Below are positions 21,204-32,786 of a DNA stretch of 35,109 nt, piece by piece. A model generated the notes under the pieces. The model ran no database searches, had not been told where the DNA came from, and saw only the letters and a program-made list of their open reading frames with translations. The first letter of the stretch is position 1. Each line of letters starts with the position of its first letter. The position numbers and the translations under genes were made by a program. This DNA is from Xanthomonas sp. NCPPB 1128 (GTDB taxonomy: Bacteria; Pseudomonadota; Gammaproteobacteria; Xanthomonadales; Xanthomonadaceae): contig NZ_LFME01000043.1 of the NCBI RefSeq assembly GCF_001043115.1, positions 1-35,109 on the forward strand, in the 5' to 3' direction.

Positions 21204-21217
21204 GCGCGGCGGCGCGG

Positions 21218-21247
21218 TTGCCGGCCCCAATGCGCTGGCAGTACGCT
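21218..21247 (+). promoter_or_regulatory. Candidate promoter of the KAS III-like operon
   Basis: TTGCCG (21218-21223) and TACGCT (21242-21247), spacer 18 bp, about 26 bp before the ATG at 21274. It is a weak match to the sigma-70 consensus. If real, it separates the operon from the glycosyltransferase gene. Confidence 0.35.
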
Positions 21248-21273
21248 GCGCGCCCCTTGTGCGAGCTTTACGG

Positions 21274-22290
21274 ATGAGCGTCCACACCAGCAGGCCCCTC
21301 GCGCTGCGCATCCTCGGCACGGGCGAGTATCTGCCCGTGCAGCAGGTGCTGGCGGAGACCTTCGACCGGCGCTGGGGCAAGCCCGCCGGCTGGACCCTGC
21401 GGCACACCGGCGTGGCCACGCGGCACTATGCGGGCGCCGACGAGCCGGCCACCTTCATGGGCGAACGTGCCGCGCGCGCGGCGCTGGAGGCAGCGCAGCT
21501 GCAGGCGCACGAGGTCGACTGCGTGATCAGTGCCTGCAGCCTGATGGAACAGGCGATCCCCTGCAGCGCGGCGTTGCTGCATGCGCGGCTGGGCCTGCAG
21601 GGTAGCGGCATCCCGGCCTTCGACATCAACGCCACCTGCCTGAGCTTCATCGCCGCGCTCGACCTGGCCGCCTGCGCGATCGCCGCCGGCCGCTATCGCC
21701 GCGTGCTGATCGTCGCCAGCGAGATCGCCAGCGTCGGCCTCAACCCGGACGATGCCGACACCGCGCCGCTGTTCGGCGATGGCGCCGCGGCGGTGATCGT
21801 CGCCGCCGACAGCGGCGACAGCGGTTCGCAATTGCTCGCGGCACGCCTGGAAACCTACTCCGAAGGCATCGACCACTGCCGCGTGCGCGCCGGCGGCACC
21901 CGCCTGCGCCTGGACCACGGCGTCGAGGCGCTGCGCGCCGGTTCGCAGTTCGAAATGCACGGCCGCGCCACCTATCGCCTCGCTGCGGCGAAACTGCCCG
22001 GCTTCCTGCAGCGGCTGCTGGCACAGGCCGGGGTCGAGCTGGCGCAACTGCGGCGGATCGTGCCGCACCAGGCCAGCGCCAAGGCGCTGCGCCATCTGCG
22101 CGTCGCGCTGGGACTGGCGCCGGATGCGCTGATCGAGATCATCGGCCATCGCGGCAACCAGATGGCGGCATCCATTCCCGGCGCGCTGCACCAGGCGATC
22201 CACAGTGGCCGCATCGTCCGTGGCGACCTGATCGGCCTGGTCGGCTCCGGCGCCGGGCTGGCGTTCGGCGGCGCGGTGTTGCGCTACTGA
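21274..22290 (+). CDS. 3-oxoacyl-ACP synthase III-like (KAS III/thiolase-fold) condensing enzyme
   Basis: A 338-residue condensing enzyme of the FabH type. The full catalytic triad is present: Cys122 in DINATCLSFIAALD, His265 in IVPHQASAK and Asn295 in GHRGNQMAASIP. GDGAAAVIV (168-176) and the C-terminal GLVGSGAGLAFGGAVL are further family marks. The ATG at 21274 is preferred to the GTG at 21259. Primary-metabolism FabH genes normally lie with fabD/fabG/acpP. This one instead leads a tight operon with an SDR, an MBL-fold protein, an ATP-grasp enzyme and a GNAT-like protein, so a specialised acyl condensation is more likely. OleA-type head-to-head condensation is another possibility. The next gene begins 1 bp after its stop. 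Confidence 0.9.
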   Translation: MSVHTSRPLALRILGTGEYLPVQQVLAETFDRRWGKPAGWTLRHTGVATRHYAGADEPATFMGERAARAALEAAQLQAHEVDCVISACSLMEQAIPCSAALLHARLGLQGSGIPAFDINATCLSFIAALDLAACAIAAGRYRRVLIVASEIASVGLNPDDADTAPLFGDGAAAVIVAADSGDSGSQLLAARLETYSEGIDHCRVRAGGTRLRLDHGVEALRAGSQFEMHGRATYRLAAAKLPGFLQRLLAQAGVELAQLRRIVPHQASAKALRHLRVALGLAPDALIEIIGHRGNQMAASIPGALHQAIHSGRIVRGDLIGLVGSGAGLAFGGAVLRY

Positions 22291-22291
22291 C

Positions 22292-23269
22292 ATGGCACGC
22301 GTCCTGGTCACCGGTGCCTCCGGCTTCATCGGCGCCTACATCGTGCGCGCCCTGGCCGAGGCCGGCGTGCCGGTGCGCGCCAGCGGCCGCGACACCGCCA
22401 AGCTGGCGGCCTTCGCTGGCGATCCGCGCATCGACGTTGTGCGTGCCGAACTATGCAGCGACGACCTGGCGCCGCTGCTGCATGGCTGCGCTGCGGTGAT
22501 CCACTGCGCGGCGTTGTCGGCGCCGTGGGCCAGCGCCGAGACCTTCCGCCTGGCCAACGTGGTCGCCACCGAACGCCTGCTCGCCGCCGCGCTGGCCGCG
22601 CGCGTGCGCCGCTTCGTGCACTTCAGTTCGCCCAGCATCTACTTCCGCTTCGCCGATCAATACCAGATCAGCGAAGACTTCACCCCGCCGGCGCGCTGGA
22701 TCGGTGGCTACCCGCAGACCAAGTGGGAAGCAGAAGAAAAGGTACGCGCCGCAGCGGCGGCCGGACTGCCGGCAGTGGTGCTGCGTCCGCGCGCGGTGTT
22801 CGGCCATGGCGACAACGCGATCGTGCCGCGCTTGCTGGCGGTGGCGCAGCGCGGCTGGTTCCCGCTGGTCAACGGCGGCCGCGCGATGATCGACGTGTGC
22901 TGCGTGGAGAACGCGGTGGCCGCGGCGCTGGCCGCGCTGCGCGCCGAGCACATCGGCGACGGCCGCGCCTACAACATCAGCAACGGCGTGCCGATCGCGG
23001 TGCGCGACCTGCTGACCGAACTGTTCGCGGTGCTGCGCCTGCGCGTGCGGCTGCTGCCGGTGCCACGCGGACCGGCACTGGCCCTGGCCACGCTCGGCGA
23101 ACAGATCGCGCTGCGCCGGCGCGGTCAACCGGAACCGCGGCTCAGCCGCTACGGCATCGGCGTGCTCGGCTATTCGCAGACGCTGGACATCGGCCGCGCG
23201 CGCCGCGAACTCGGCTATGCGCCGGTACTGTCGACCGAGGCCGGGCTGGCCGCACTGGGGCGGCCATGA
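22292..23269 (+). CDS. NAD-dependent epimerase/dehydratase family (extended SDR, 3beta-HSD/OleD-like)
   Basis: A 325-residue extended short-chain reductase. The cofactor glycine motif is VLVTGASGFIGAY (residues 4-16). The catalytic pair is Tyr140 and Lys144 in GGYPQTKWEAEEKV, with a Ser in HFSSPSIYF (around 113). Arg31/33 after strand 2 (RASGRD) suggests NADPH preference. VLRPRAVFGHGD and YNISNGVPIAVRDLL fit the 3-beta-hydroxysteroid dehydrogenase / OleD branch, which reduces beta-keto groups. It could reduce the beta-keto product of the preceding KAS III-like enzyme; this is inference from gene order. It starts 1 bp after that gene and overlaps the MBL gene by 4 bp (ATGA). Confidence 0.92.
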   Translation: MARVLVTGASGFIGAYIVRALAEAGVPVRASGRDTAKLAAFAGDPRIDVVRAELCSDDLAPLLHGCAAVIHCAALSAPWASAETFRLANVVATERLLAAALAARVRRFVHFSSPSIYFRFADQYQISEDFTPPARWIGGYPQTKWEAEEKVRAAAAAGLPAVVLRPRAVFGHGDNAIVPRLLAVAQRGWFPLVNGGRAMIDVCCVENAVAAALAALRAEHIGDGRAYNISNGVPIAVRDLLTELFAVLRLRVRLLPVPRGPALALATLGEQIALRRRGQPEPRLSRYGIGVLGYSQTLDIGRARRELGYAPVLSTEAGLAALGRP

Positions 23270-24114
23270 GCGCGCCACGGCTGCGCTGGCGGCTGTACGA
23301 GGCCGGCCACTGCACGCACCCCGAACGCGCCACGCGGCGCGGCGCACCGCTGGCGCCGTGCCCGTTCCCGGCGCTGGCGGCGCTGCTGCAGCATCCGCAG
23401 CACGGCGATCTGCTGTTCGACACCGGCTACGCGCAGCACTTCTTCGACGCCACCGCGCGTTTCCCCGAGCGGCTGTATCGCTGGCTGACTCCGGTGCAAC
23501 TGGCGCCCGGACAATCGCTGCGCGACCAGCTCGCCCGCGACGGCGTGGATCCGGACCATATCGGCTGGATCGTGCTCTCGCACTTCCATGGCGACCACGT
23601 CGGCGGCGTCGCCGATTTCCCGCAGGCGCGCCTGGCCTGCGCACGACAGGCCTGGGACGACCTGCAGCGCCGCGGCCGGCTGGCCGCGCTGCGCGAAGGC
23701 TTCCTGCCGGCGCTGCTGCACGGCGCGCGCCCGCGCATGCACTGGATCGAGGCGCTGCCCGCGGCCGCACCGCCCACCGCGCTGCGCGACTTCGGCACAC
23801 CGCGCGATCTGTTCGGCGACGGCAGCGTGCTGCTGGTGCCGCTGCCCGGGCATGCGCCCGGCCACTACGGCCTGTGGTTCGAGGACGCGCACGGCCCGGT
23901 GTTCCTGATCGCCGACGCGGCCTGGTCCAGCGCCGCGCTCGCCGATGGCACGCCGCCGCCGGCGCTGGTCACCCACCTGCTCGGCGAGCACCGCGTGTAT
24001 CGCGACACGTTGGCGCGGCTGCATGCGCTGCGCCAGGCCGAGCCGGCGTTGCGGCTGGTGCCCTCGCATTGCCGGCAATGGCGGCCGGCGCCGGCGGAGC
24101 ACACGCATGGCTGA
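23266..24114 (+). CDS. MBL-fold metallo-hydrolase (lactonase-like)
   Basis: A 282-residue metallo-beta-lactamase-fold protein with all seven expected metal ligands: His106, His108, Asp110 and His111 in LSHFHGDHVGG, His196 in PLPGHAPGHY, Asp217 in LIADAAW and His268 in VPSHC. The pattern is close to lactonases and acyl-thioester hydrolases that carry two zinc ions. There is no signal peptide, so it is cytoplasmic. Within this operon it might cyclise, hydrolyse or release an acyl intermediate. A quorum-quenching lactonase is the alternative reading. It begins in an ATGA overlap with the SDR gene and ends 8 bp inside the ATP-grasp gene. Confidence 0.9.
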   Translation: MSAPRLRWRLYEAGHCTHPERATRRGAPLAPCPFPALAALLQHPQHGDLLFDTGYAQHFFDATARFPERLYRWLTPVQLAPGQSLRDQLARDGVDPDHIGWIVLSHFHGDHVGGVADFPQARLACARQAWDDLQRRGRLAALREGFLPALLHGARPRMHWIEALPAAAPPTALRDFGTPRDLFGDGSVLLVPLPGHAPGHYGLWFEDAHGPVFLIADAAWSSAALADGTPPPALVTHLLGEHRVYRDTLARLHALRQAEPALRLVPSHCRQWRPAPAEHTHG

Positions 24115-25288
24115 TGCCCCCGGCGTGCTGATCACCGGCGCGCGTGCGCCGGTCGCCCTGGACCTGGCGCGCCGTTTCGCCGCGCAGGGCTGGCGGGTGC
24201 ACCTGGCCGACAGCGTCGCCAGCCGCATCTCCGGCTGGTCGCGCGCGGTCGCCGCGCATCACCGCGTCGCCCCGGCACGCGATGCGCCGCGCGCCTGGCT
24301 GGCCGATCTCAACGATGTGCTGGCACGCCAGCGCATCGACGTGCTGGTGCCGACCTGCGAGGAAGTGTTCTACCTGGCCCGCTACCGCAGCGCGCTGCCG
24401 GCGCAACTGCACCTGCCGCTCCACGACTTCGACACGCTGCGCACGCTGCACAGCAAGTACGCGTTCATGGAACTGGCGCGCGGTCTGGACAGTGACGTCG
24501 ACGTGCCCGACAGCATCCGCGTGCACGACCTGGAACAGGCGCGCGAATGGGCGGGCACTGCGCCACTGGTGCTGAAACCGGAATTCTCGCGCTTCGGCGT
24601 GCATGTCCGGCTGTACCCGCACGGCATGCTGGCCGCGGACACGCCGCTGCCCGATCAGGGCGCCTGGGTCGCGCAGCGCTACTGCGATGGCGAGGAACGC
24701 TGCTCGTATGCGTTGGCGCGCGACGGCGTGTTGCTGGCGCATGCGGTGTATCGCCCGCGCTATCGCCTGCGGCGTAGTTCCAGCTACTACTTCGACGCCG
24801 CGCCGGATCCGCAGATCGAGCGCTTCACCGCGCAGTTGGTGCAGGCGCTGCGCTTCAGCGGGCAGATCTCCTTCGACTGGATGGTCTCCGCGCAAGGGCG
24901 CTGCAGCGTGATCGAGTGCAATCCGCGCGCGACCAGCGGCCTGCACCTGTTTGCCGCGACCGACCCACTGGTGGCCTTGCTGTGCGGCGACGCGGGCGAT
25001 GCGCAGGCGCCGCTGCGCCCGGCCGACGACCGCGCGGCGATGCTGGGCATGCTCATGCTGGGCGTGGCCTTGCCGGCAGCGTTGGGCCATGGCCGGCTGC
25101 GGCAGTGGCGCCAGGACTACGTGCGCGCCGAGGACGTGCTGGCGCCGCGCGGCGACCGCTGGCCGCTGGCCGGCACGCTGTGCGACCTGGGCAGCCATGC
25201 GCGGCTGGCGCTGGCGCAACGCTGCAGCGTACGCGAGGCCGCCACCCGCGATACCGAATGGGACGGCGAGGCGCTGCCGCCGCCATGA
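24107..25288 (+). CDS. ATP-grasp domain carboxylate-amine/thiol ligase-like protein
   Basis: A 393-residue protein. The N-terminal pre-ATP-grasp domain begins VLITGARAPVALDLARRFAA. A central Lys157 in APLVLKPEFSRFG is the expected ATP-phosphate contact. AQRYCDGEERCSYALARDG forms the B-domain strands. The metal-binding end is SVIECNPRATSGLHLF, with Glu270, Asn272 and Arg274. Such enzymes activate a carboxylate as an acyl phosphate and join it to an amine, thiol or hydroxyl. The specific substrates cannot be read from sequence. The gene overlaps the MBL gene by 8 bp and the next gene by 4 bp, so it is firmly inside the operon. Confidence 0.88.
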   Translation: MADAPGVLITGARAPVALDLARRFAAQGWRVHLADSVASRISGWSRAVAAHHRVAPARDAPRAWLADLNDVLARQRIDVLVPTCEEVFYLARYRSALPAQLHLPLHDFDTLRTLHSKYAFMELARGLDSDVDVPDSIRVHDLEQAREWAGTAPLVLKPEFSRFGVHVRLYPHGMLAADTPLPDQGAWVAQRYCDGEERCSYALARDGVLLAHAVYRPRYRLRRSSSYYFDAAPDPQIERFTAQLVQALRFSGQISFDWMVSAQGRCSVIECNPRATSGLHLFAATDPLVALLCGDAGDAQAPLRPADDRAAMLGMLMLGVALPAALGHGRLRQWRQDYVRAEDVLAPRGDRWPLAGTLCDLGSHARLALAQRCSVREAATRDTEWDGEALPPP

Positions 25289-26400
25289 ACGCCGGCAGCG
25301 TCGAGCCCGCGGCCCCCGACTACGCCGCGCAGCTGCAGCGCTTCACCGCGCTGCATGCCGGTGGCGACGCGCAGCAACTGGCCGACAACGCGCAGGCGCG
25401 CATCGAGGTACTGCAGGCCGGCGCGCTGACGCTGCCGGTGACGGTCGGCGAACACCACCCCGGCAACGCCTGGGTGTGCTCGCCGCGCACCACCTATGCC
25501 GACTACGCCGCCGAGGAAGCCGCGCGGCTGCTGCCTGGCACACTGGCCGCACCGGTGCGCGGCCTGTGCGGCGGCATCGGCGCGTGGCTGGACTGGGCGC
25601 GGATCGACCGTGCGGTCACCCTCAACAACTGGCTGCTGTCCACCAACCTGTATCCGCCGCTGCCGCCCGGCAGCCTGCGCACGTTGCTGGACGCCGCACG
25701 TGCGCGCTGGCCCGACCACGCGCTGTGGTTCCGCTCGCTCAATGCGGTGGACACGCCGCAATGGCTGCACGCGCTGCAGGCCGAAGGCTTCACCCTGATC
25801 GCCAGTCGCCAGGTGTACATGTACCAGGACTGGCCGCAGCTGCTGCGCCATCGCGACCTGGCCCGCGACCTCAAGCTGGTCGACCGCCGCGATCTGCAGC
25901 GCTGCGGCAACGACGCCATCGGCGAGGCCGACTATCCGCGCATCGCCGCGCTGTATGCGCAGCTGTATCTGGAAAAGTATTCGCGCTGCAATCCGGCCTA
26001 CCACGCCGGCTTCCTGCGTGCCTGGCACCGCGCCGGGCTGCTGCGCTTCGACGGCTTCCGCGACGATACCGGGCAGTTGGTGTGCATCACCGGCCTGTTC
26101 GGCATCGGCGGCACCGTCACCGCTCCCATCGTCGGCTATGACCTGCGGCTGCCGCAGCGGCTGGCGCTGTACCGCACCCTCACCGCCTGCGGCATCGACC
26201 ATGCGCGACGGTACGGCCAGCGCCTCAACCAGAGCGCCGGCGCTGCCAGCTTCAAGCGCCAGCGCGGCGGCATGCCAGTCATCGAATACAGCGCGGTCGA
26301 TGCGCGCCACCTGCCGTTGCGGCGACGCCAGCCGATCGCCGCGCTCGGCGCGCTGACCCGGCGCATCGGCGTGCCGCTGATGCGCAAGTACCGGTTGTAA
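25285..26400 (+). CDS. GNAT/FemAB-like acyltransferase-type protein, function unknown
   Basis: A 371-residue soluble protein without a signal peptide. I do not recognise an exact family. The C-terminal half has the look of a GNAT/BioF2-like fold as in FemAB-type transferases: DYPRIAALYAQLYLEKYSRCNPAYHAGF in two parts, GQLVCITGLFGIGGTVTAPIV, and NQSAGAASFKRQRGGMPVIEY, the last resembling the acceptor loop of that group. The N-terminal half includes WVCSPRTTYADYAAEEAARL and LNNWLLSTNLYPPLPPG. It starts in an ATGA overlap with the ATP-grasp gene and is the last gene of the packed set. It probably transfers an acyl or aminoacyl group to the pathway product; this is inference. Confidence 0.75.
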   Translation: MNAGSVEPAAPDYAAQLQRFTALHAGGDAQQLADNAQARIEVLQAGALTLPVTVGEHHPGNAWVCSPRTTYADYAAEEAARLLPGTLAAPVRGLCGGIGAWLDWARIDRAVTLNNWLLSTNLYPPLPPGSLRTLLDAARARWPDHALWFRSLNAVDTPQWLHALQAEGFTLIASRQVYMYQDWPQLLRHRDLARDLKLVDRRDLQRCGNDAIGEADYPRIAALYAQLYLEKYSRCNPAYHAGFLRAWHRAGLLRFDGFRDDTGQLVCITGLFGIGGTVTAPIVGYDLRLPQRLALYRTLTACGIDHARRYGQRLNQSAGAASFKRQRGGMPVIEYSAVDARHLPLRRRQPIAALGALTRRIGVPLMRKYRL

Positions 26401-26543: not shown

Positions 26544-27731
26544 GTGGAATGGATTGCGCATCTGGCCCATGCCGGCACCCTGCTGATCGTCAACGCATTG
26601 CTCGCGGCAGTGTCCTCGGCGATGTTCCTGGCCCTGTACGTCACCGGCCGCAAGGAACGGCACGCGCGCAGCCTGCTGCTGCTGGCGCTGAGCTACGGCG
26701 TGTTCGCCCTGGGCTTCGGCATCCTGCTGGCGCCGGCCTGGAACGTCACCAACTTCTGGGTCAACCACATCGGCAACGTCACCTTGGACGTGGCCACCAT
26801 GCTGACGCTGGTGGCGGTGAACGCTTATCTGCGGCGTCCGCTGCTGCAATGGACGCTGCTGGTGCCGGTCGCGCTGCTCTGCGCACTGGAGCTCTACAGC
26901 CTGTCCTACGCCAACCACGATCACCGGATCATGGTGATCTTCGGCGGCATGGTGCGCGGCCTGCTGACCGCCGCGACCGCAGTCGCGCTGTGGCGCTATG
27001 CCGACAGCGTGGTGCGCTCGGCGGCGCGCTTCACCGCCGTCTGCCATTTCCTGTGGGCTGGCATGGTGGGACTGCGGATCGCCTGGTGGGCGCTCCACCC
27101 CGATGCCGATACCAGCTACGACCCGACCACCAACTTCGGCCTGCTCTCGCGCATCGTGCTGACTGCAAGCATCACGCCCGGTTTCCTGTGGATGCTGACC
27201 CGCGAAATGAATGCGGAACTGATGCGGCATGCCTCACAGGATCCGCTCACCGGGGTGACCAACCGCCGGGTGATGTGGGAGCGCGGCGAGGCGGCGACCC
27301 ACGATGCCGCGCGCAAGCAGGGGTCGGTCGCGGTACTGATGATCGACGTGGACCATTTCAAATCGATCAACGACCGCTTCGGCCATGCCGTCGGCGACCA
27401 GGTGCTGATCGCCATCGCGCAGACGCTGGCGCAGCACATCCGCACGCCCGACCTGCTGGCGCGCATCGGCGGCGAGGAATTCATGGTGCTGGTCCCGCAT
27501 GGCGAGGAGGCGGGGGTGCGCGATCTCGCCGAGCGCCTGCGGCGACGCATCGAGCAGCAGCAGATCGAGGCGGTGCCGGAGACACCGCTGGTGTGCACGG
27601 TGAGCATCGGCTACTGCCTGTCGGCAGGGGCGCAGGCGCCCTGGCAGACCCTGGTGCTGGCCGCCGACCAGGCCCTGTATGCGGCCAAGCGCGCCGGCCG
27701 CAACCGGGTCGCCGGCACCGCCATCGCATGA
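26544..27731 (+). CDS. Membrane-bound diguanylate cyclase (GGDEF domain)
   Basis: A 395-residue enzyme making c-di-GMP from two GTP. The N-terminal 220 residues hold about seven hydrophobic segments, a membrane sensor of unidentified class. The cyclase domain (about 225-393) has DPLTGVTNRR, MIDVDHFKSINDRFGHAVGD and the active-site GGEEF (309-313). RTPD (300-303), five residues before it, is the RxxD inhibitory site for product feedback. All elements of an active, feedback-controlled cyclase are present. It begins with GTG at 26544; a nearby ATG is out of frame. It lies 43 bp before the Rieske gene and shares the neighbourhood with an EAL phosphodiesterase and motAB, a set typical of motility/biofilm switching. 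Confidence 0.95.
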   Translation: MEWIAHLAHAGTLLIVNALLAAVSSAMFLALYVTGRKERHARSLLLLALSYGVFALGFGILLAPAWNVTNFWVNHIGNVTLDVATMLTLVAVNAYLRRPLLQWTLLVPVALLCALELYSLSYANHDHRIMVIFGGMVRGLLTAATAVALWRYADSVVRSAARFTAVCHFLWAGMVGLRIAWWALHPDADTSYDPTTNFGLLSRIVLTASITPGFLWMLTREMNAELMRHASQDPLTGVTNRRVMWERGEAATHDAARKQGSVAVLMIDVDHFKSINDRFGHAVGDQVLIAIAQTLAQHIRTPDLLARIGGEEFMVLVPHGEEAGVRDLAERLRRRIEQQQIEAVPETPLVCTVSIGYCLSAGAQAPWQTLVLAADQALYAAKRAGRNRVAGTAIA

Positions 27732-27774: not shown

Positions 27775-28788
27775 ATGAGCGCCTGGCATCCGTCGCTGTA
27801 CCGACAGTGGTTCGCCGTCGCTCCCGCCGCGGCGTTGCGCCAGCGACCGCTGGGGGTGTCGGTGATGGACCGGCATGCGGCGATCGCGCGTTGCGCCGAC
27901 GGCCGCCTGCTGGCGCTGGAGGACCGCTGCCCGCACCGGCACGCCCCGCTGTCGGCCGGCTGCGCCACCGGCGATGGCCTGTCCTGCCCGTACCACGGCT
28001 GGCGCTTCGACCGCGACGGCGCCCTGCGCGAGATCCCCGGCCTGCCGCCCGGGCAGGCGCCGCCGGCGGTGCGGGTGCGCGCCTTCGCCGCGCGCGAGCA
28101 CGACGGGCTGATCTGGCTGCGTCCCGATCCGGAAGGCGCGGACGCGCCGTCGCAACTGGTGCAGGCGCTGCAGCCGTCGGCGCGGCGCTTCCTGTGGCGC
28201 ACGCGCTGGGACGCGCACGTGGTCGATGCGCTGGAGAACTTCCTGGACCCGCTGCACACCCATCTGCTGCATCCGGGGCTGGTGCGGCGCGGCGGCGCGC
28301 GCACCGCCATGCGCGCCGAGTTGCGGCACACCGACGAAGGCTTCCACGTCGACTACCGCGGCGCCGCGGCGCAGAGCGGCTGGCTGTACCGGCTGTTCGA
28401 ATCGCCGCGCATCCTGGAACGCGCGCATTTCGCCGCCCCCGGCAGCGCGCAGATCGAGTACCGCTACGCGCGCGGCGGCCGCGTGCGGATCAGCCTGTAC
28501 TTCACCCCGCTCGGCGCACGCAGCACCGACGTCTTCGCCAGCCTGCACGTGGAGGGGCGCTGGGCGCCGGCGTGGGCGGTGCGCTTGCTGGTGTGGCCGC
28601 TGCTGCGCCGCGTTGGCGAACAGGACCGGCGCATGCTCGCCCTGCAGTCGCGCAACCTGCAGCGCTACCCGGGTGCGCGCGCTGCCTCGACCGCACTGGA
28701 TCTGGTGCGCGAACCGCTGCGCCGCTACTGGGACGGCGAAGCGCTCCCGACGCCGGGCAGCGGCCACGACGTGGACCTCATGCTGTGA
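27775..28788 (+). CDS. Rieske non-heme iron oxygenase
   Basis: A 337-residue oxygenase alpha-type subunit. The Rieske 2Fe-2S site is Cys52-x-His54 and Cys71-x2-His74 (RCPHRHAPLS and SCPYHGWRF). The mononuclear iron triad is visible in ENFLDPLHTHLLHP as Asp158, His161 and His166, with the bridging-type Asn155. The C-terminal half is otherwise poorly conserved, which fits the pheophorbide/ketosteroid/VanA-like groups. No reductase or ferredoxin gene is nearby, so electrons must come from elsewhere. It begins 43 bp after the cyclase and overlaps the convergent phosphodiesterase gene by 11 bp at the 3' ends. It could tailor the product of the operon at 21274-26400; this is only proximity. Confidence 0.92.
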   Translation: MSAWHPSLYRQWFAVAPAAALRQRPLGVSVMDRHAAIARCADGRLLALEDRCPHRHAPLSAGCATGDGLSCPYHGWRFDRDGALREIPGLPPGQAPPAVRVRAFAAREHDGLIWLRPDPEGADAPSQLVQALQPSARRFLWRTRWDAHVVDALENFLDPLHTHLLHPGLVRRGGARTAMRAELRHTDEGFHVDYRGAAAQSGWLYRLFESPRILERAHFAAPGSAQIEYRYARGGRVRISLYFTPLGARSTDVFASLHVEGRWAPAWAVRLLVWPLLRRVGEQDRRMLALQSRNLQRYPGARAASTALDLVREPLRRYWDGEALPTPGSGHDVDLML

Positions 28789-31756
28789 CCGTGCAGAGCC
28801 GCTGCAGCACCTCCGCTAACGGGGCCGGGCGCCCGAGCAGATAGCCCTGCACGCCGCCGCAGCCATGCGCGCGTAGCCAGCGCAACTGGCTCTCGGTTTC
28901 CACGCCCTCGGCGACCACGTCCAGCCCCAGGCAATGGCCCAGGGTCAGCAGCGCCTGGCAGATCGAGGCGTTGCGCGGATCGCGGTCCACCTCGGCGACG
29001 AAGCTGCGGTCGATCTTCAGCGTGTCCAGCGGCAGGTCGCGCAGATACGCCATGCTGGAGAAACCGGTGCCGACATCGTCCAGGGCCACGCGCACGCCCA
29101 GCGCGCGCAGCTGCCGCAGCACGTCGCCGGCCTGCTGCGGCTGCCGCATCAGGCTGCTCTCGGTCAGCTCCAACTGCAGGCCATTGGCGGCCAACCCGAC
29201 CTCGGCGCAGGCCTGCGCCAGGTCGGCGACCAGGTCGCCATCGAAGAACTGCAGCGCCGACACGTTCACCGCCACCGGCAGATCCGGCCATCCATGCTCG
29301 ACCAGGGCGCGGCGCGCCCGCGCCGCGGCGCGCATCACCCAGCGCCCCAGCGGCAGGATCAGCCCGGTGTCCTCGCACAACTGGATGAACGCATCCGGCG
29401 CAATGAAGCTGCCGTCGGCCTGCGGCCAGCGGATCAGCGCCTCCAGTTCGCGCGGCGCGCCGCTGACGGCGTCCATGATCGGCTGGAAGTGCAGCTCGAA
29501 TTCCTGGCGCTCGATCGCCTGCTGGATACGTCCGGCCAGGCGCAGGCGCTCGCCGGTGCGTGCCGCCATGGCGCGGTCGAAGCGCACCAGGCTGCGGCCC
29601 TCGGCCTGTGCCGCGTGCGCGGCCTGCGCAGCGCTGCCGATGACCTCGTCGGCGCTGGCGGCATCGTCCGGACACAACGCCACGCCGATGTGCGCCTGCA
29701 GTTGCTGGGTGAATTCGCCGCCCTGCACCGGCGCGTACAGCGCCTCCTGCAAGGCCTGCAGCGCTTGCGGCAGCGCCTGCGGATCCAGGATCGCCAGCAC
29801 GAAGTCCTGCACAGGCTGGTGCGCGCTCAGGCCGAAACGTTCGCCCAGCACGCGAATGCGTTCGGCCACCGCGCAGCGCACAGCGTCGCCGGCGGCACGG
29901 CCCAGGGTGTCGCCGATCAGCGACAGTCCGCGCACCTGCACATAGGCGATCGCATAACCGTCGCGCCGCTGCGCATGCAGGGTCTCGGCCAGGGCACGCG
30001 GCTTGAGCAGGCCCGTGCTGAACTCGTGCTGGGCAAGGAACGCCAGTTCGCGCTCGTGGGCCAGGCGCTCGGTGACGTCCTCGGCCAGGATCAACCGCGC
30101 CGACACGCCGCCGAATTCCAGATCGGCGCTGTGGATGCACACCGACAGCAGGCTGCCGTCCTTGCGCCGGTGCGTCCATACGCTCGGCACGTCGAAGCCC
30201 TCACGCGGTTTGCGCACATCCTGCAGCAAGCGCTCGGCATCCTCCGGCGGGCGCAGATCGCGCAACTCCATCGCCAGGAATTCCTCGCGGCTGTAGCCGT
30301 ACTGGCGCACCGCGGCCTGGTTCACTTCCAGGAAGCGCAGGCTGTCCACGGCGAATACCCAGTACGGCAGCGGATTGCGGTCGAACACCAGCCGGAACTG
30401 ACGCTCGGCATCGAGCAGCCGCGCCTGCGCCGCCACCCGATCGCTGACATCCTGCACCGCGCCGGTCATGCACATGCCATTGCGGGTACGCACCAGCGCG
30501 CCGCGCGCGGCCAGCCAGCGCAGGCGCCCATCGGGCAGGTGCATGCGGTAGACGGTGTTGTAGTCCGCGCGCCCCTGCGCGGCGTCCTCGTACAGCTGCG
30601 TCACCCGCGCGCGATCCTCGTCGTGGATCCGCTCCAGGAACGCCTCGATGGGCAGCTGCATGCGCTGCAGGCCGAACATCGCGCCGGTCGGCTCGGACAG
30701 GCGCAATACGCGCTCGGCGATGTCGATGCGCCAGGTGCCGATGCCGCCCATGCCGTGGGCCAGGCGCAGATCCTCGTCGCCGCGGCGCAGGCGCTGCAGC
30801 AGGTGGCGCTGGCGGCGCTCGGCACGGCGCAGGCTCACCAGCAGATAGGCCAGGCCGAGCAGGTACAGCACGTACACCAGCGCCGCCGCCGCGACGAACC
30901 ACCACCAGCCGGACAGCGTCTCGCGCAGCCCCACCCCGGCCACCGCCAGCAACGGATACGCACCGCCGCCGCTCAGCGCCAGGATCCGCGACGTGCCGTC
31001 GAAGACATCGCGGCGCACGCCCAGCGCGCCGCCATGCGGCATCGGCCGCGCCAGCGCGATCGGCAGGCGAGGCTGGCCGGCCGCAAGCGGGCGGCTGGCG
31101 GCCAGCAGCACGCCCTGCGCGTCGGTCAGCGCGACGATGCCGTCGCGTCCGCTGTCGGTCCCCTGCACGATGCGCTGCAGGGCGGCCACCCGCCATTGCG
31201 CCTCGACCCAGCCATCGGTCCCCCAGGGCACGGCCACACGCACCACGGCCTCGCCGTCGGCCAGGCGCAACGGCGGGCTCACGCAGACCCGACCGCCGCA
31301 GCGCGCATGCTGCATCCAGGCGCGCAGTGGTGCATCGCCGGCGCCACCGAAGCGGCGTTGCCCCTGCGCATTCAGCAAAGCCACGTCGCGCAGTTCCAGG
31401 TGTCGCGCCAGCAGGCCGTGCAACGAGGCGGCGATCAGCTCGGGCGCACGCACCGGCGTCTCCGCCAGCAGCGCCTGCGCGCCCAGGCCTTCGCCATGCA
31501 GGGCCTGGCCGAGATTGTCCAGTTGCAACTGCAGCAGGCGGTCGGCGCCGGTGGCCAGCGCCAGGCTCTGCCGCTGCGCCGCGGCCAGGCGGTTGTGGCG
31601 GTCCTGTGCCAGGACCAGCACCAGGCCGGCCGCCAGCAGCACCGCCAGCACCAGGCCCCAGGTCGCGATCGCCCGCAACGGCGCGCGCGTGACGCGCCGC
31701 AGGCTGTGCCGAAAGCGACGGTCGCGCTTCCTGTCGGCGAGCGGGTTCTGCGGCAT
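28778..31756 (-). CDS. PAS/degenerate-GGDEF/EAL c-di-GMP phosphodiesterase, membrane-bound
   Basis: A 992-residue multidomain enzyme. A basic N-terminus and TM1 (about 30-50) are followed by a periplasmic sensor region (51-280) and TM2 (284-308). Two PAS folds follow (about 330-445 and 450-565), then a GGDEF-like domain (about 575-735) without the GG(D/E)EF signature, where HQPVQDFVLA stands in its place. The EAL domain (745-985) is intact: E772-A-L, Asn831, Glu864, Asp893-Asp894 (LDDVGTGFSS), Lys914, Glu950 and Gln970. It should hydrolyse c-di-GMP under control of a periplasmic and a PAS signal. Its stop lies inside the 3' end of the Rieske gene. It is probably monocistronic. Confidence 0.95.
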   Translation of the reverse strand: MPQNPLADRKRDRRFRHSLRRVTRAPLRAIATWGLVLAVLLAAGLVLVLAQDRHNRLAAAQRQSLALATGADRLLQLQLDNLGQALHGEGLGAQALLAETPVRAPELIAASLHGLLARHLELRDVALLNAQGQRRFGGAGDAPLRAWMQHARCGGRVCVSPPLRLADGEAVVRVAVPWGTDGWVEAQWRVAALQRIVQGTDSGRDGIVALTDAQGVLLAASRPLAAGQPRLPIALARPMPHGGALGVRRDVFDGTSRILALSGGGAYPLLAVAGVGLRETLSGWWWFVAAAALVYVLYLLGLAYLLVSLRRAERRQRHLLQRLRRGDEDLRLAHGMGGIGTWRIDIAERVLRLSEPTGAMFGLQRMQLPIEAFLERIHDEDRARVTQLYEDAAQGRADYNTVYRMHLPDGRLRWLAARGALVRTRNGMCMTGAVQDVSDRVAAQARLLDAERQFRLVFDRNPLPYWVFAVDSLRFLEVNQAAVRQYGYSREEFLAMELRDLRPPEDAERLLQDVRKPREGFDVPSVWTHRRKDGSLLSVCIHSADLEFGGVSARLILAEDVTERLAHERELAFLAQHEFSTGLLKPRALAETLHAQRRDGYAIAYVQVRGLSLIGDTLGRAAGDAVRCAVAERIRVLGERFGLSAHQPVQDFVLAILDPQALPQALQALQEALYAPVQGGEFTQQLQAHIGVALCPDDAASADEVIGSAAQAAHAAQAEGRSLVRFDRAMAARTGERLRLAGRIQQAIERQEFELHFQPIMDAVSGAPRELEALIRWPQADGSFIAPDAFIQLCEDTGLILPLGRWVMRAAARARRALVEHGWPDLPVAVNVSALQFFDGDLVADLAQACAEVGLAANGLQLELTESSLMRQPQQAGDVLRQLRALGVRVALDDVGTGFSSMAYLRDLPLDTLKIDRSFVAEVDRDPRNASICQALLTLGHCLGLDVVAEGVETESQLRWLRAHGCGGVQGYLLGRPAPLAEVLQRLCTVTA

Positions 31757-31859: not shown

Positions 31860-32786
31860 TCAGCCCGCGGCGGGCCACTGCGCCAGTTGCTGCGTGGTCA
31901 GGCCGACGCGCCTGCAGGCACGCGCAGCGATGCCGTCGTGCAGTGCCACCCGGAACAGCGGCGCCACCCGCTGCAGCAACCAGGCCGGCACCGCTGGGCC
32001 GGTGCGCTGCAACCGCGCCTGCCGCAGCATGGCGCTGGCCCACGGTGGCAGCAAGGCCGCGCCGGCCCCCAGGAACAGTTCCCGCGACAGGCCTGGCGCC
32101 GGTACCGGCAGGCGCAGGCCAGCCAGCACCGCCAGCACTTCGCGCGAGCGCGCATCCACCCGCAACTGCGGCCGCTGCCGTTCGAAGTAGTCCAACACGG
32201 CCGCCTCGCTGGCCGGGACCTGGCGTGCGCCCAGCGCCTCGGCCACGCGCCGGCCTTCGTCGTAGTAACGGTCCGCGATCGCCGCCGGGACTTCACGGCA
32301 GTAGCGGCGGTAGCCCTGCAGGAAGCCGTAGGCCTCGGTCACGTGCACCCAGGTCAGCAGCGCCGGATCGTCGGCCGCGTAGGCACGCCCGTCGGGCGTG
32401 TGCCCGCGCACCCACGCGTGGATCGCGCGGACCCGGGCGATCTGGTGCTGCGCCGCATCCGTGGGCGCGTAGCTGGTGGCGGCGACGAACTGGGTGGTGC
32501 GGCGCAGGCGCCCGACCAGGTCCTCGCGGAAGTTGGAATGGTCGTAGACACCGGCCAGCGCCAGCGGGTGCAGGGTCTGCAGCAGCAGCGCACACAGCCC
32601 GCCGGCCAGCATCCCGGGAAACTCGGCATGGATGCGCCAGGTGACGCTGTCCGGACCGAACAGGCCGATGTCGCCGAGCGGCTGGTCGTAATCAATGGCG
32701 TCGCGCTCGCGCGGGAACGCGCCCAGCACCCAGCGGCGGATCTGGGTGGTGGCCGGAGCGGAGAGCGCACGTAGTAGCGAAGCCAT
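31860..32786 (-). CDS. MpaB-family (DUF2236) oxygenase-like protein
   Basis: A 308-residue, mainly helical protein. DUF2236/MpaB marks are HAEFPGMLAGGLCALLLQTL with HPLALAGVYDHSNF, GRLRRTTQFVAATSY, then RVRAIHAWVRGHTPDGRAYA and TWVHVTEAYGFLQGYRRY. Family members include the latex-clearing protein and mycophenolic-acid MpaB, heme-type oxygenases that bind iron through a conserved His; candidates here are in LLLQTLHPLA and TWVHVTEAYG. The reaction in this organism is unknown. There is no signal peptide. The gene is divergent from the small membrane protein gene, with 176 bp between starts, and 103 bp separates it from the phosphodiesterase start. Confidence 0.88.
   Translation of the reverse strand: MASLLRALSAPATTQIRRWVLGAFPRERDAIDYDQPLGDIGLFGPDSVTWRIHAEFPGMLAGGLCALLLQTLHPLALAGVYDHSNFREDLVGRLRRTTQFVAATSYAPTDAAQHQIARVRAIHAWVRGHTPDGRAYAADDPALLTWVHVTEAYGFLQGYRRYCREVPAAIADRYYDEGRRVAEALGARQVPASEAAVLDYFERQRPQLRVDARSREVLAVLAGLRLPVPAPGLSRELFLGAGAALLPPWASAMLRQARLQRTGPAVPAWLLQRVAPLFRVALHDGIAARACRRVGLTTQQLAQWPAAG

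What the first reader, a model, noticed from the sequence alone, without database searches (positions are those of the whole stretch)
21274..26400. Compact five-gene biosynthetic operon: KAS III-like, SDR, MBL fold, ATP-grasp, GNAT/FemAB-like
Five complete genes run with a 1-bp gap and then overlaps of 4, 8 and 4 bp, so they are almost certainly made together. Catalytic residues are intact in the first four (Cys122/His265/Asn295; Tyr140/Lys144; seven metal ligands; Lys157/Glu270/Asn272). There is no NRPS, PKS module or carrier protein. The combination suggests acyl condensation, beta-keto reduction, thioester or lactone hydrolysis, ATP-driven ligation and amide transfer, giving a small acylated metabolite. 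I know of no characterised pathway with this exact set, so it is the best candidate here for an undescribed system.
Basis: partly seen in the sequence, partly recalled or inferred. Interest (0 to 1): 0.72.

Follow-up and report, generated by a model that had tools for sequence, protein, structure and literature searches.

The report
Putative acyl-amide biosynthesis gene cluster
Six of seven enzyme families that keep turning up together in distantly related bacteria sit side by side in this plant-associated bacterium and probably build a small fatty-acid/amino-acid molecule that I could not find described; a shortened version sits in about one in eight complete E. coli genomes, so it can be tested in laboratory strains.

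Summary
The five-gene operon is real and as described (1-bp gap, overlaps of 4, 8 and 4 bp), and intact in 15 of 20 genomes of its genus. A Rieske oxygenase gene at 27775-28788, behind a GGDEF gene, belongs to the system: it is intact in the same 15 genomes, broken together with the other five in a sixteenth where the GGDEF gene is whole, and directly follows the GNAT gene in Duganella, Rhodanobacter, Dyella and relatives. All six full loci from other families found through the ATP-grasp protein also carry an adenylate-forming ligase (TIGR02304), which this genome lacks. The core KAS-SDR-MBL-TIGR02304 occurs in Alpha-, Beta- and Gammaproteobacteria, Bacillota, and 672 of 5,426 complete E. coli genomes, including Nissle 1917 and ATCC 25922. 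The GNAT model matches aminoacyl-tRNA-dependent peptide synthases and FemX best; the ATP-grasp model matches PurD, PylC and other ATP-grasp enzymes. I propose that a fatty-acid-like unit is condensed, reduced, released, coupled to amino acid(s) by ATP-grasp ligation and FemX-type transfer, and oxidised by the Rieske enzyme. Substrates, order and product are inferred. Searches of an open-licence paper library showed no description of the set.

The parts
21274..22290 (+). KAS III-like condensing enzyme (338 aa), C122/H265/N295
   Evidence: closest NCBIfam PRK07204, 364.7 bits, cut-off 402; closest solved by sequence: CorB 4yuc, E 6.6e-57
22292..23269 (+). SDR reductase of the NAD-dependent epimerase type, OleD-like (325 aa), Y140/K144
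   Evidence: (OleD model 177.6 bits, cut-off 580)
23266..24114 (+). MBL-fold hydrolase (282 aa), HxHxDH site, distant from AHL lactonases and 4-pyridoxolactonase
24107..25288 (+). ATP-grasp ligase (393 aa), K157/E270/N272; PRK06849-like
25285..26400 (+). tandem-GNAT transferase with FemX-like fold (371 aa)
27775..28788 (+). Rieske non-haem iron oxygenase (337 aa from the MSAWH start), part of the system though separated by a GGDEF gene
   Evidence: Rieske 72.5 bits, VanA_C 44 bits; NxxDxxHxxxxH from N155
26544..27731 (+). diguanylate cyclase (GGDEF) lying between GNAT and Rieske; judged not part of the system: no hit in the locus of two genus genomes that keep the rest (L077, L080), and intact in the genome where all six system genes are broken (L085)

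Best explanation
The window holds six of the seven genes of a conserved biosynthetic system without NRPS, PKS module or dedicated carrier protein: KAS III, OleD-type SDR, MBL hydrolase, ATP-grasp ligase, FemX-like tandem GNAT and Rieske oxygenase. The seventh, an adenylate-forming ligase of family TIGR02304, is absent here. Proposed order (all steps inferred): the KAS III makes one carbon-carbon bond (acyl thioester plus malonyl-ACP from ordinary fatty-acid synthesis) to give a 3-oxoacyl chain; the SDR reduces it to a 3-hydroxyacyl chain; the MBL hydrolase releases the acid from its thioester; where present, TIGR02304 activates an acid as acyl-AMP; the ATP-grasp enzyme joins a carboxylate to an amine through an acyl phosphate; the GNAT adds an amino acid, most likely from an aminoacyl-tRNA as in FemX and the streptothricin-type peptide synthases; the Rieske enzyme oxidises the product. 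The product would be a small hydroxylated acyl-amino-acid or aminoacyl-lipid. Shown: gene content, co-inheritance, intact catalytic residues, predicted folds. Not shown: substrates, order, product.
Confidence: 0.5

Rival explanations
1. The system makes a membrane lipid rather than a diffusible metabolite: the KAS-SDR part builds a long-chain backbone, the FemX/MprF-like GNAT aminoacylates it, and Rieske or FA-hydroxylase/desaturase enzymes modify it.
For: MprF, a lipid aminoacyltransferase, is among the fold matches of the GNAT; the E. coli and G381 branches add PAP2, FA_hydroxylase-family and FA_desaturase genes.
Against: None of the six window proteins matches a membrane-enzyme family; the E. 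coli branch has no GNAT or ATP-grasp hit in the locus; the membrane enzymes are branch-specific.
Confidence: 0.2
2. A diverged analogue of the OleABCD pathway: KAS in the role of OleA (head-to-head acyl condensation), SDR as OleD, TIGR02304 as OleC and MBL as OleB, giving a beta-lactone, olefin or ketone.
For: The SDR's best NCBIfam model is OleD (177.6 bits), and a protein over the OleD cut-off is its closest paralogue in the same genome (36%); the four core enzyme classes parallel OleABCD (recalled comparison).
Against: The KAS scores 219.7 bits on the FabH model and 86.7 on the OleA-type model PRK09258 (cut-off 285), and CorB is its closest solved structure by sequence; neither an OleB-type nor an OleC-type protein is among the window genes; the genome has an OleD over cut-off and a PRK09258 KAS elsewhere; it does not explain ATP-grasp, GNAT and Rieske.
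Confidence: 0.13
3. A catabolic set: Rieske oxygenase, CoA ligase, SDR, MBL hydrolase and a thiolase-like KAS break down an aromatic, sterol or lipid compound.
For: Rieske oxygenases and PaaK-type ligases are common in catabolism (recalled); the Rieske and SDR have weak hits to the sterol-demethylation proteins SdmA and SdmB (64.9 and 60 bits, cut-offs 600); TetR-family genes lie beside some copies.
Against: The KAS has the Cys-His-Asn triad of decarboxylating condensing enzymes in 35 of 35; ATP-grasp and FemX-like enzymes are ligating; no transporter gene recurs beside the set in the annotated loci that I read.
Confidence: 0.1
4. A quorum-signal pathway of the alkylquinolone or lactone type (adenylating ligase, KAS III and MBL thioesterase as in PqsA, PqsD and PqsE).
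For: Same three enzyme classes as in the Pqs pathway (recalled); in G381 the cluster lies near a LuxI gene and a probable LuxR-type gene; the MBL is distantly like AHL lactonases.
Against: LuxI was noted near one copy only; the MBL match to lactonase models is far below cut-off (67.4 bits, cut-off 390); no receptor gene recurs in the annotated loci that I read.
Confidence: 0.07

Closest known systems
OleABCD long-chain olefin / beta-lactone pathway
   Same: KAS III-fold condensing enzyme followed by an OleD-type SDR; an AMP-forming ligase in relatives of other families
   Different: KAS is FabH/CorB-like by scores; hydrolase is MBL instead of an alpha/beta hydrolase; the relatives' ligase is PaaK-like; ATP-grasp, FemX-like GNAT and Rieske added. 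An OleD over cut-off and a PRK09258-type KAS sit elsewhere in this genome
FemX / MprF / streptothricin-type aminoacyl-tRNA-dependent transferases
   Same: tandem-GNAT fold over 235-274 residues; the invariant F323-K324 recalls the Phe304-Lys305 pair of FemX (recalled, residue alignment not seen)
   Different: 9-14% identity only; no FemAB Pfam match; tRNA use untested; operon partners are fatty-acid-type enzymes
PurD / PylC-type ATP-grasp ligases
   Different: 10-17% identity; carboxylases match as well; substrate unknown; no Pfam model reaches its cut-off for the window protein
NCBIfam families PRK07204, PRK06849 and TIGR02304 (no assigned pathway in their names)
   Same: These models appear to describe the KAS, ATP-grasp and ligase of this system; 3 of 3 Bacillota KAS tested pass PRK07204, and Bacillota ligases pass TIGR02304
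   Different: Window KAS and ATP-grasp fall below the cut-offs; the 3 Bacillota ATP-grasp relatives tested do too (364-402 of 406); no TIGR02304 gene in the window's genome
Pqs pathway (PqsA, PqsD, PqsE)
   Same: adenylating ligase, KAS III and MBL thioesterase classes (recalled)
   Different: reductase, ATP-grasp, FemX-like and Rieske steps have no counterpart there (recalled, not tested)

Membership tests
OleABCD pathway | condensing enzyme over the PRK09258 (OleA-type) cut-off | tested here: not met
   86.7 bits against 285; a KAS at another locus of the same genome scores 469.5
OleABCD pathway | OleD equivalog NF042422 cut-off | tested here: not met
   177.6 bits against 580; a paralogue on contig C14 scores 623.4
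OleABCD pathway | OleB-type alpha/beta hydrolase and OleC ligase in the operon | tested here: not met
   third gene is MBL fold, fourth ATP-grasp, fifth GNAT
PRK07204 KAS III | curated score of 402 bits | tested here: not met
   window 364.7; Bacillota relatives 424.9, 469.4 and 457.3; E. coli relative 333.4
PRK06849 ATP-grasp | curated score of 406 bits | tested here: not met
   window 323.3; relatives 329.8-401.6, none over cut-off in the 4 tested
ATP-grasp superfamily | ATP-grasp fold with catalytic Lys, Glu, Asn | tested here: met
FemX/MprF-type tandem GNAT | tandem GNAT fold | tested here: met
FemX/MprF-type tandem GNAT | use of aminoacyl-tRNA | not testable with these tools
   needs an enzyme assay
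AHL lactonase (MBL) | equivalog cut-offs of the AiiA/AttM models | tested here: not met
   67.4 bits against 390 for AttM, 42.9 against 375 for AiiA
KAS-SDR-MBL-TIGR02304 core system | KAS, SDR, MBL in that order | tested here: met
KAS-SDR-MBL-TIGR02304 core system | TIGR02304 adenylate-forming gene in the genome | tested here: not met
   0 matches at E <= 0.001 in the window's assembly, 71 contigs, completeness 100; also no hit in the fetched loci of 14 congeners with the intact operon and of 9 family genomes outside the genus
Rieske non-haem oxygenase | Rieske centre and 2-His-1-carboxylate motif | tested here: met
   Pfam Rieske 72.5 bits; C52, C71, D158, H161, H166 in 21 of 21, H54 and H74 in 20 of 21
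Pqs pathway | PqsD- and PqsE-type proteins | not tested
   comparison recalled only

The most novel reading that the evidence does not exclude
A previously undescribed pathway, spread over at least two phyla, couples one KAS III condensation from ordinary fatty-acid synthesis to aminoacyl-tRNA-dependent (FemX-type) and ATP-grasp amide formation and Rieske oxidation, making a new class of aminoacyl-fatty-acid metabolites without NRPS, PKS or its own carrier protein; a four-gene core of it sits unnoticed in about 12% of complete E. coli genomes.
Probability: 0.3. Interest if true: 0.82.

Novelty: new variant of a known kind. Interest (0 to 1): 0.62.

Why it matters
If the reading is right, it gives a purpose to protein families that carry no functional name in NCBIfam (PRK06849 'hypothetical protein', TIGR02304 'F390 synthetase-related protein') and shows a way to link fatty-acid chemistry to tRNA-derived amino acids without a dedicated carrier protein. 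Because the four-gene core is annotated complete in well-used E. coli strains (Nissle 1917, ATCC 25922), a product can be looked for by deleting one gene and comparing extracts.

Tried and rejected
Considered and rejected: that the five genes are the whole system (Rieske conserved, TIGR02304 in relatives of other families). That the GGDEF gene between GNAT and Rieske belongs (no hit in loci L077 and L080; intact in L085 where the six others are broken). That ATPG-GNAT-Rieske works alone: first read so from L087-L089, then KAS-SDR-MBL relatives were found elsewhere in the same three genomes. The two Deinococcus copies of ATPG-GNAT remain open: only their plasmids were searched; one holds a KAS III at 35% that I did not look into, the other none. 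Bacterial ceramide synthesis was considered as a parallel; the paper search brought nothing usable and it stays a recalled lead. The Vfm signal cluster of Dickeya was considered because G381 carries LuxI; only a search listing was seen.

Led nowhere: profile search of the GNAT family against PDB sequences (chance-like hits only); paper searches (0 papers; no paper on this set among those listed; of 26, 11,900 and 67 papers only 20, 25 and 10 were listed). From PMC2649909 one passage was read: it mentions an F390-synthetase annotation in a Desulfotalea-type FASII cluster, a different setting. Plain Foldseek (library pdb) was never accepted by the queue, so the fold comparisons rest on VIA-align 2 alone.

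Rows dropped and choices: 5 of 15 loci (L036-L040) match only a short part of the ATP-grasp protein, weakly; L035 is a 3.4-kb contig with ATPG at its edge. Two weak ATPG hits (G035, G040) and a weak second hit in G116 were not counted. TIGR02304-anchored searches favour loci that have that gene, so the share of relatives with TIGR02304 is given only for loci found through the ATP-grasp protein. Of 71 plasmid records matching TIGR02304 I opened 10 from that list, chosen by hand: 8 have KAS-SDR-MBL-ligase side by side; on two Pseudomonas megaplasmids (pBASL58, pMPPla107) the relatives are spread over 13-22 kb among unknown genes. Of 6 Bacillota genomes over cut-off, 5 neighbourhoods were read and one of these (G756) lacks KAS and SDR; G604 is split over contigs and was not read. 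Of 38 Pseudomonadota genomes with any TIGR02304 match I read the 4 over cut-off and the next 2. The two module trees use 28 of the 35 rows with a KAS; the 7 without an ATP-grasp hit were left out. The rejection of a xanthomonad-plus-Burkholderiales clade for KAS-SDR-MBL (p-AU 0.003) was asked after seeing the tree, on quick trees.
Full report
Observation. Recomputed coordinates are KAS III 21274-22290, SDR 22292-23269, MBL 23266-24114, ATP-grasp 24107-25288 and GNAT 25285-26400, with a 1-bp gap and overlaps of 4, 8 and 4 bp. The assembly is a 4.95-Mb genome in 71 contigs whose nearest named relatives in the scan are Xanthomonas sp. F10 and X. bonasiae. The families were confirmed by Pfam and NCBIfam, the ATP-grasp and GNAT also by predicted structures.

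Conservation in the genus. Of 20 genomes of the genus, 15 (the window's included) hold a full-length KAS orthologue at 82% identity or more; G151 holds a broken one; G149, G157, G159 and G162 show only paralogues at 33% or less. Around the KAS, all five genes follow in order in 15 of 15. Three of the four junctions are the same to the base in all 15; SDR-MBL overlaps by 4 bp in 8 and is 64-166 bp apart in 7. dN/dS between the window and five congeners is 0.08-0.37 in 25 gene comparisons, which fits purifying selection.

The missed Rieske gene. The gene at 27775-28788 encodes a Rieske oxygenase (Pfam Rieske 72.5 bits, VanA_C 44 bits) with both iron sites: C52, C71, D158, H161 and H166 are invariant in 21 relatives, H54 and H74 in 20 of 21. 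In Duganella, Rhodanobacter, Dyella, Oleiagrimonas and two family members (L086, L091) it overlaps the end of the GNAT gene by a few bases; in L090 it starts within about 20 bases. In the genus a GGDEF gene lies between; two genus loci (L077, L080) show no GGDEF hit there. Rieske is intact in exactly the 15 genomes with an intact KAS, broken in G151, a 76-residue fragment in G162 and not found in three (E <= 1e-20). In G151 KAS, SDR, MBL, ATPG, GNAT and Rieske are all in pieces or partly deleted while the GGDEF gene in their midst is whole. Across 149 family genomes, Rieske (E <= 1e-30) is found in 12, all of them among the 15 with a strong ATP-grasp match; three have ATP-grasp without Rieske.

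The wider system. Among 15 loci found through the ATP-grasp protein in named genomes, 9 are full enough to read (L026-L034). They hold KAS, SDR, MBL and ATPG in 9, GNAT in 7, Rieske in 7, and an adenylate-forming ligase in 6, over the TIGR02304 cut-off in the 3 tested. The 6 with the ligase are the 6 from families other than the window's. The order KAS-SDR-MBL-TIGR02304-ATPG-GNAT-Rieske is seen in Duganella, Rhodanobacter, Dyella and Oleiagrimonas, and in Paraburkholderia with the Rieske frame in two pieces. Paenibacillus has KAS-ATPG-SDR-MBL-TIGR02304-GNAT. Shinella and Rhizobium have KAS-SDR-MBL-ligase-GNAT-Rieske with ATPG on the other strand. In Pseudomonadota 4 of 299 sampled genomes pass the TIGR02304 cut-off and all 4 have KAS-SDR-MBL beside it; the next two, below cut-off, do too. 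In Bacillota 6 of 299 pass; of five neighbourhoods read, four have KAS, SDR and MBL and one (G756) does not. Of 10 opened plasmid records with the ligase, 8 have the four core genes side by side and 2 have relatives scattered over 13-22 kb. A KAS relative in Priestia stands apart from the set, beside an acyl carrier protein and an MMPL transporter. The window's own genome has no TIGR02304 gene, and none was seen in the fetched regions of its genus or of nine family genomes. Within the family but outside the genus, six loci have KAS-SDR-MBL-ATPG together, five of them with GNAT and three with Rieske. In three family genomes of one genus (g15) ATPG-GNAT-Rieske and a KAS-SDR-MBL set sit at two loci of the same genome; there the KAS-SDR-MBL copies are distant, 33-41% identical to the window's. 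That ties the halves together even without linkage, though the distant copies leave room for doubt.

E. coli. The core KAS-SDR-MBL-TIGR02304, followed by PAP2, sterol-desaturase-family and acyl-CoA-desaturase genes, lies between narI and two tRNA-Tyr genes in UPEC 26-1, Nissle 1917 and ATCC 25922. A 5.8-kb query over most of it is found, at 80% coverage or more, in 672 of 5,426 complete E. coli genomes; a KAS-only query also finds 672, with CFT073 and LF82 in the listing.

History. Trees of concatenated KAS-SDR-MBL and ATPG-GNAT-Rieske over 28 genomes share their main groups, but the two Burkholderiales rows lie outside the xanthomonad group for the first half (a common clade is rejected, p-AU 0.003, asked after seeing the tree) and group with it for the second (support 99; a purely xanthomonad clade is not rejected, p 0.38). 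So halves may have been exchanged. The support comes from quick searches.

Mechanism. The families suggest one condensation, one reduction, release of the acid, activation, amide formation by the ATP-grasp enzyme, aminoacyl transfer by the FemX-like GNAT and oxidation by the Rieske enzyme. Where TIGR02304 is missing, as here, activation may fall to the ATP-grasp enzyme or to an unlinked ligase; this is open. The first steps would use pools of ordinary fatty-acid synthesis, which would explain the absence of a carrier-protein gene. Product and order are inference.

Known or new. No paper on this gene set turned up in the listings of searches of an open-licence library; three of these listings were capped, subscription papers are not covered, and no cluster-comparison tool was available. 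I therefore call it a new variant of a known kind: a small fatty-acid/amide biosynthetic system with an unusual and widely conserved set of enzymes.

Noticed in passing
L178 7001-13882 (E. coli Nissle 1917), L179 7001-13882 (ATCC 25922), L149 8001-14882 (UPEC 26-1): KAS-SDR-MBL-TIGR02304-PAP2-sterol desaturase family-acyl-CoA desaturase between narI and tRNA-Tyr; the query was found in 672 of 5,426 complete E. coli genomes.
   Followed up: partly
L085 8238-13927 (G151): A decaying copy: KAS, SDR, MBL, ATPG, GNAT and Rieske broken or partly deleted, GGDEF between them intact.
   Followed up: partly
window 21204-21273; L071-L084: The gap between the upstream GT2 gene and KAS is about 70 bp in the window and similar in some congeners, and about 600-650 bp in others; an insertion or deletion not examined.
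   Followed up: no
L126 745-2113 and 4250-12379 (G381): An autoinducer synthase (LuxI) gene, a probable LuxR-type gene (by eye) and a pectinesterase gene stand next to the core cluster with PAP2, FA hydroxylase and two desaturases.
   Followed up: no
L139 4530-6136, L140 3571-5230: Sulfotransferase and TetR genes divergent from the core cluster in Ketogulonicigenium and Paracoccus plasmids.
   Followed up: no
L138, L144 (Pseudomonas megaplasmids pMPPla107 and pBASL58): KAS, TIGR02304-like and ATP-grasp relatives spread over about 13-22 kb among unknown genes on large plasmids.
   Followed up: no
L158 3438-4406 and 12674-13753 (window genome, contig C14): An OleD over cut-off (623.4 bits, cut-off 580) and a PRK09258 KAS III about 8 kb apart in the window's genome.
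   Followed up: partly
window 28778-31756 (-), 31863-32786 (-): A large PAS-GGDEF-EAL type protein and an MpaB/rubber-oxygenase-family protein downstream of the Rieske gene.
   Followed up: no
L147 7998-11626 (Priestia megaterium plasmid): A KAS III relative (35%) beside an acyl carrier protein and an MMPL transporter, without the other genes of the set.
   Followed up: no
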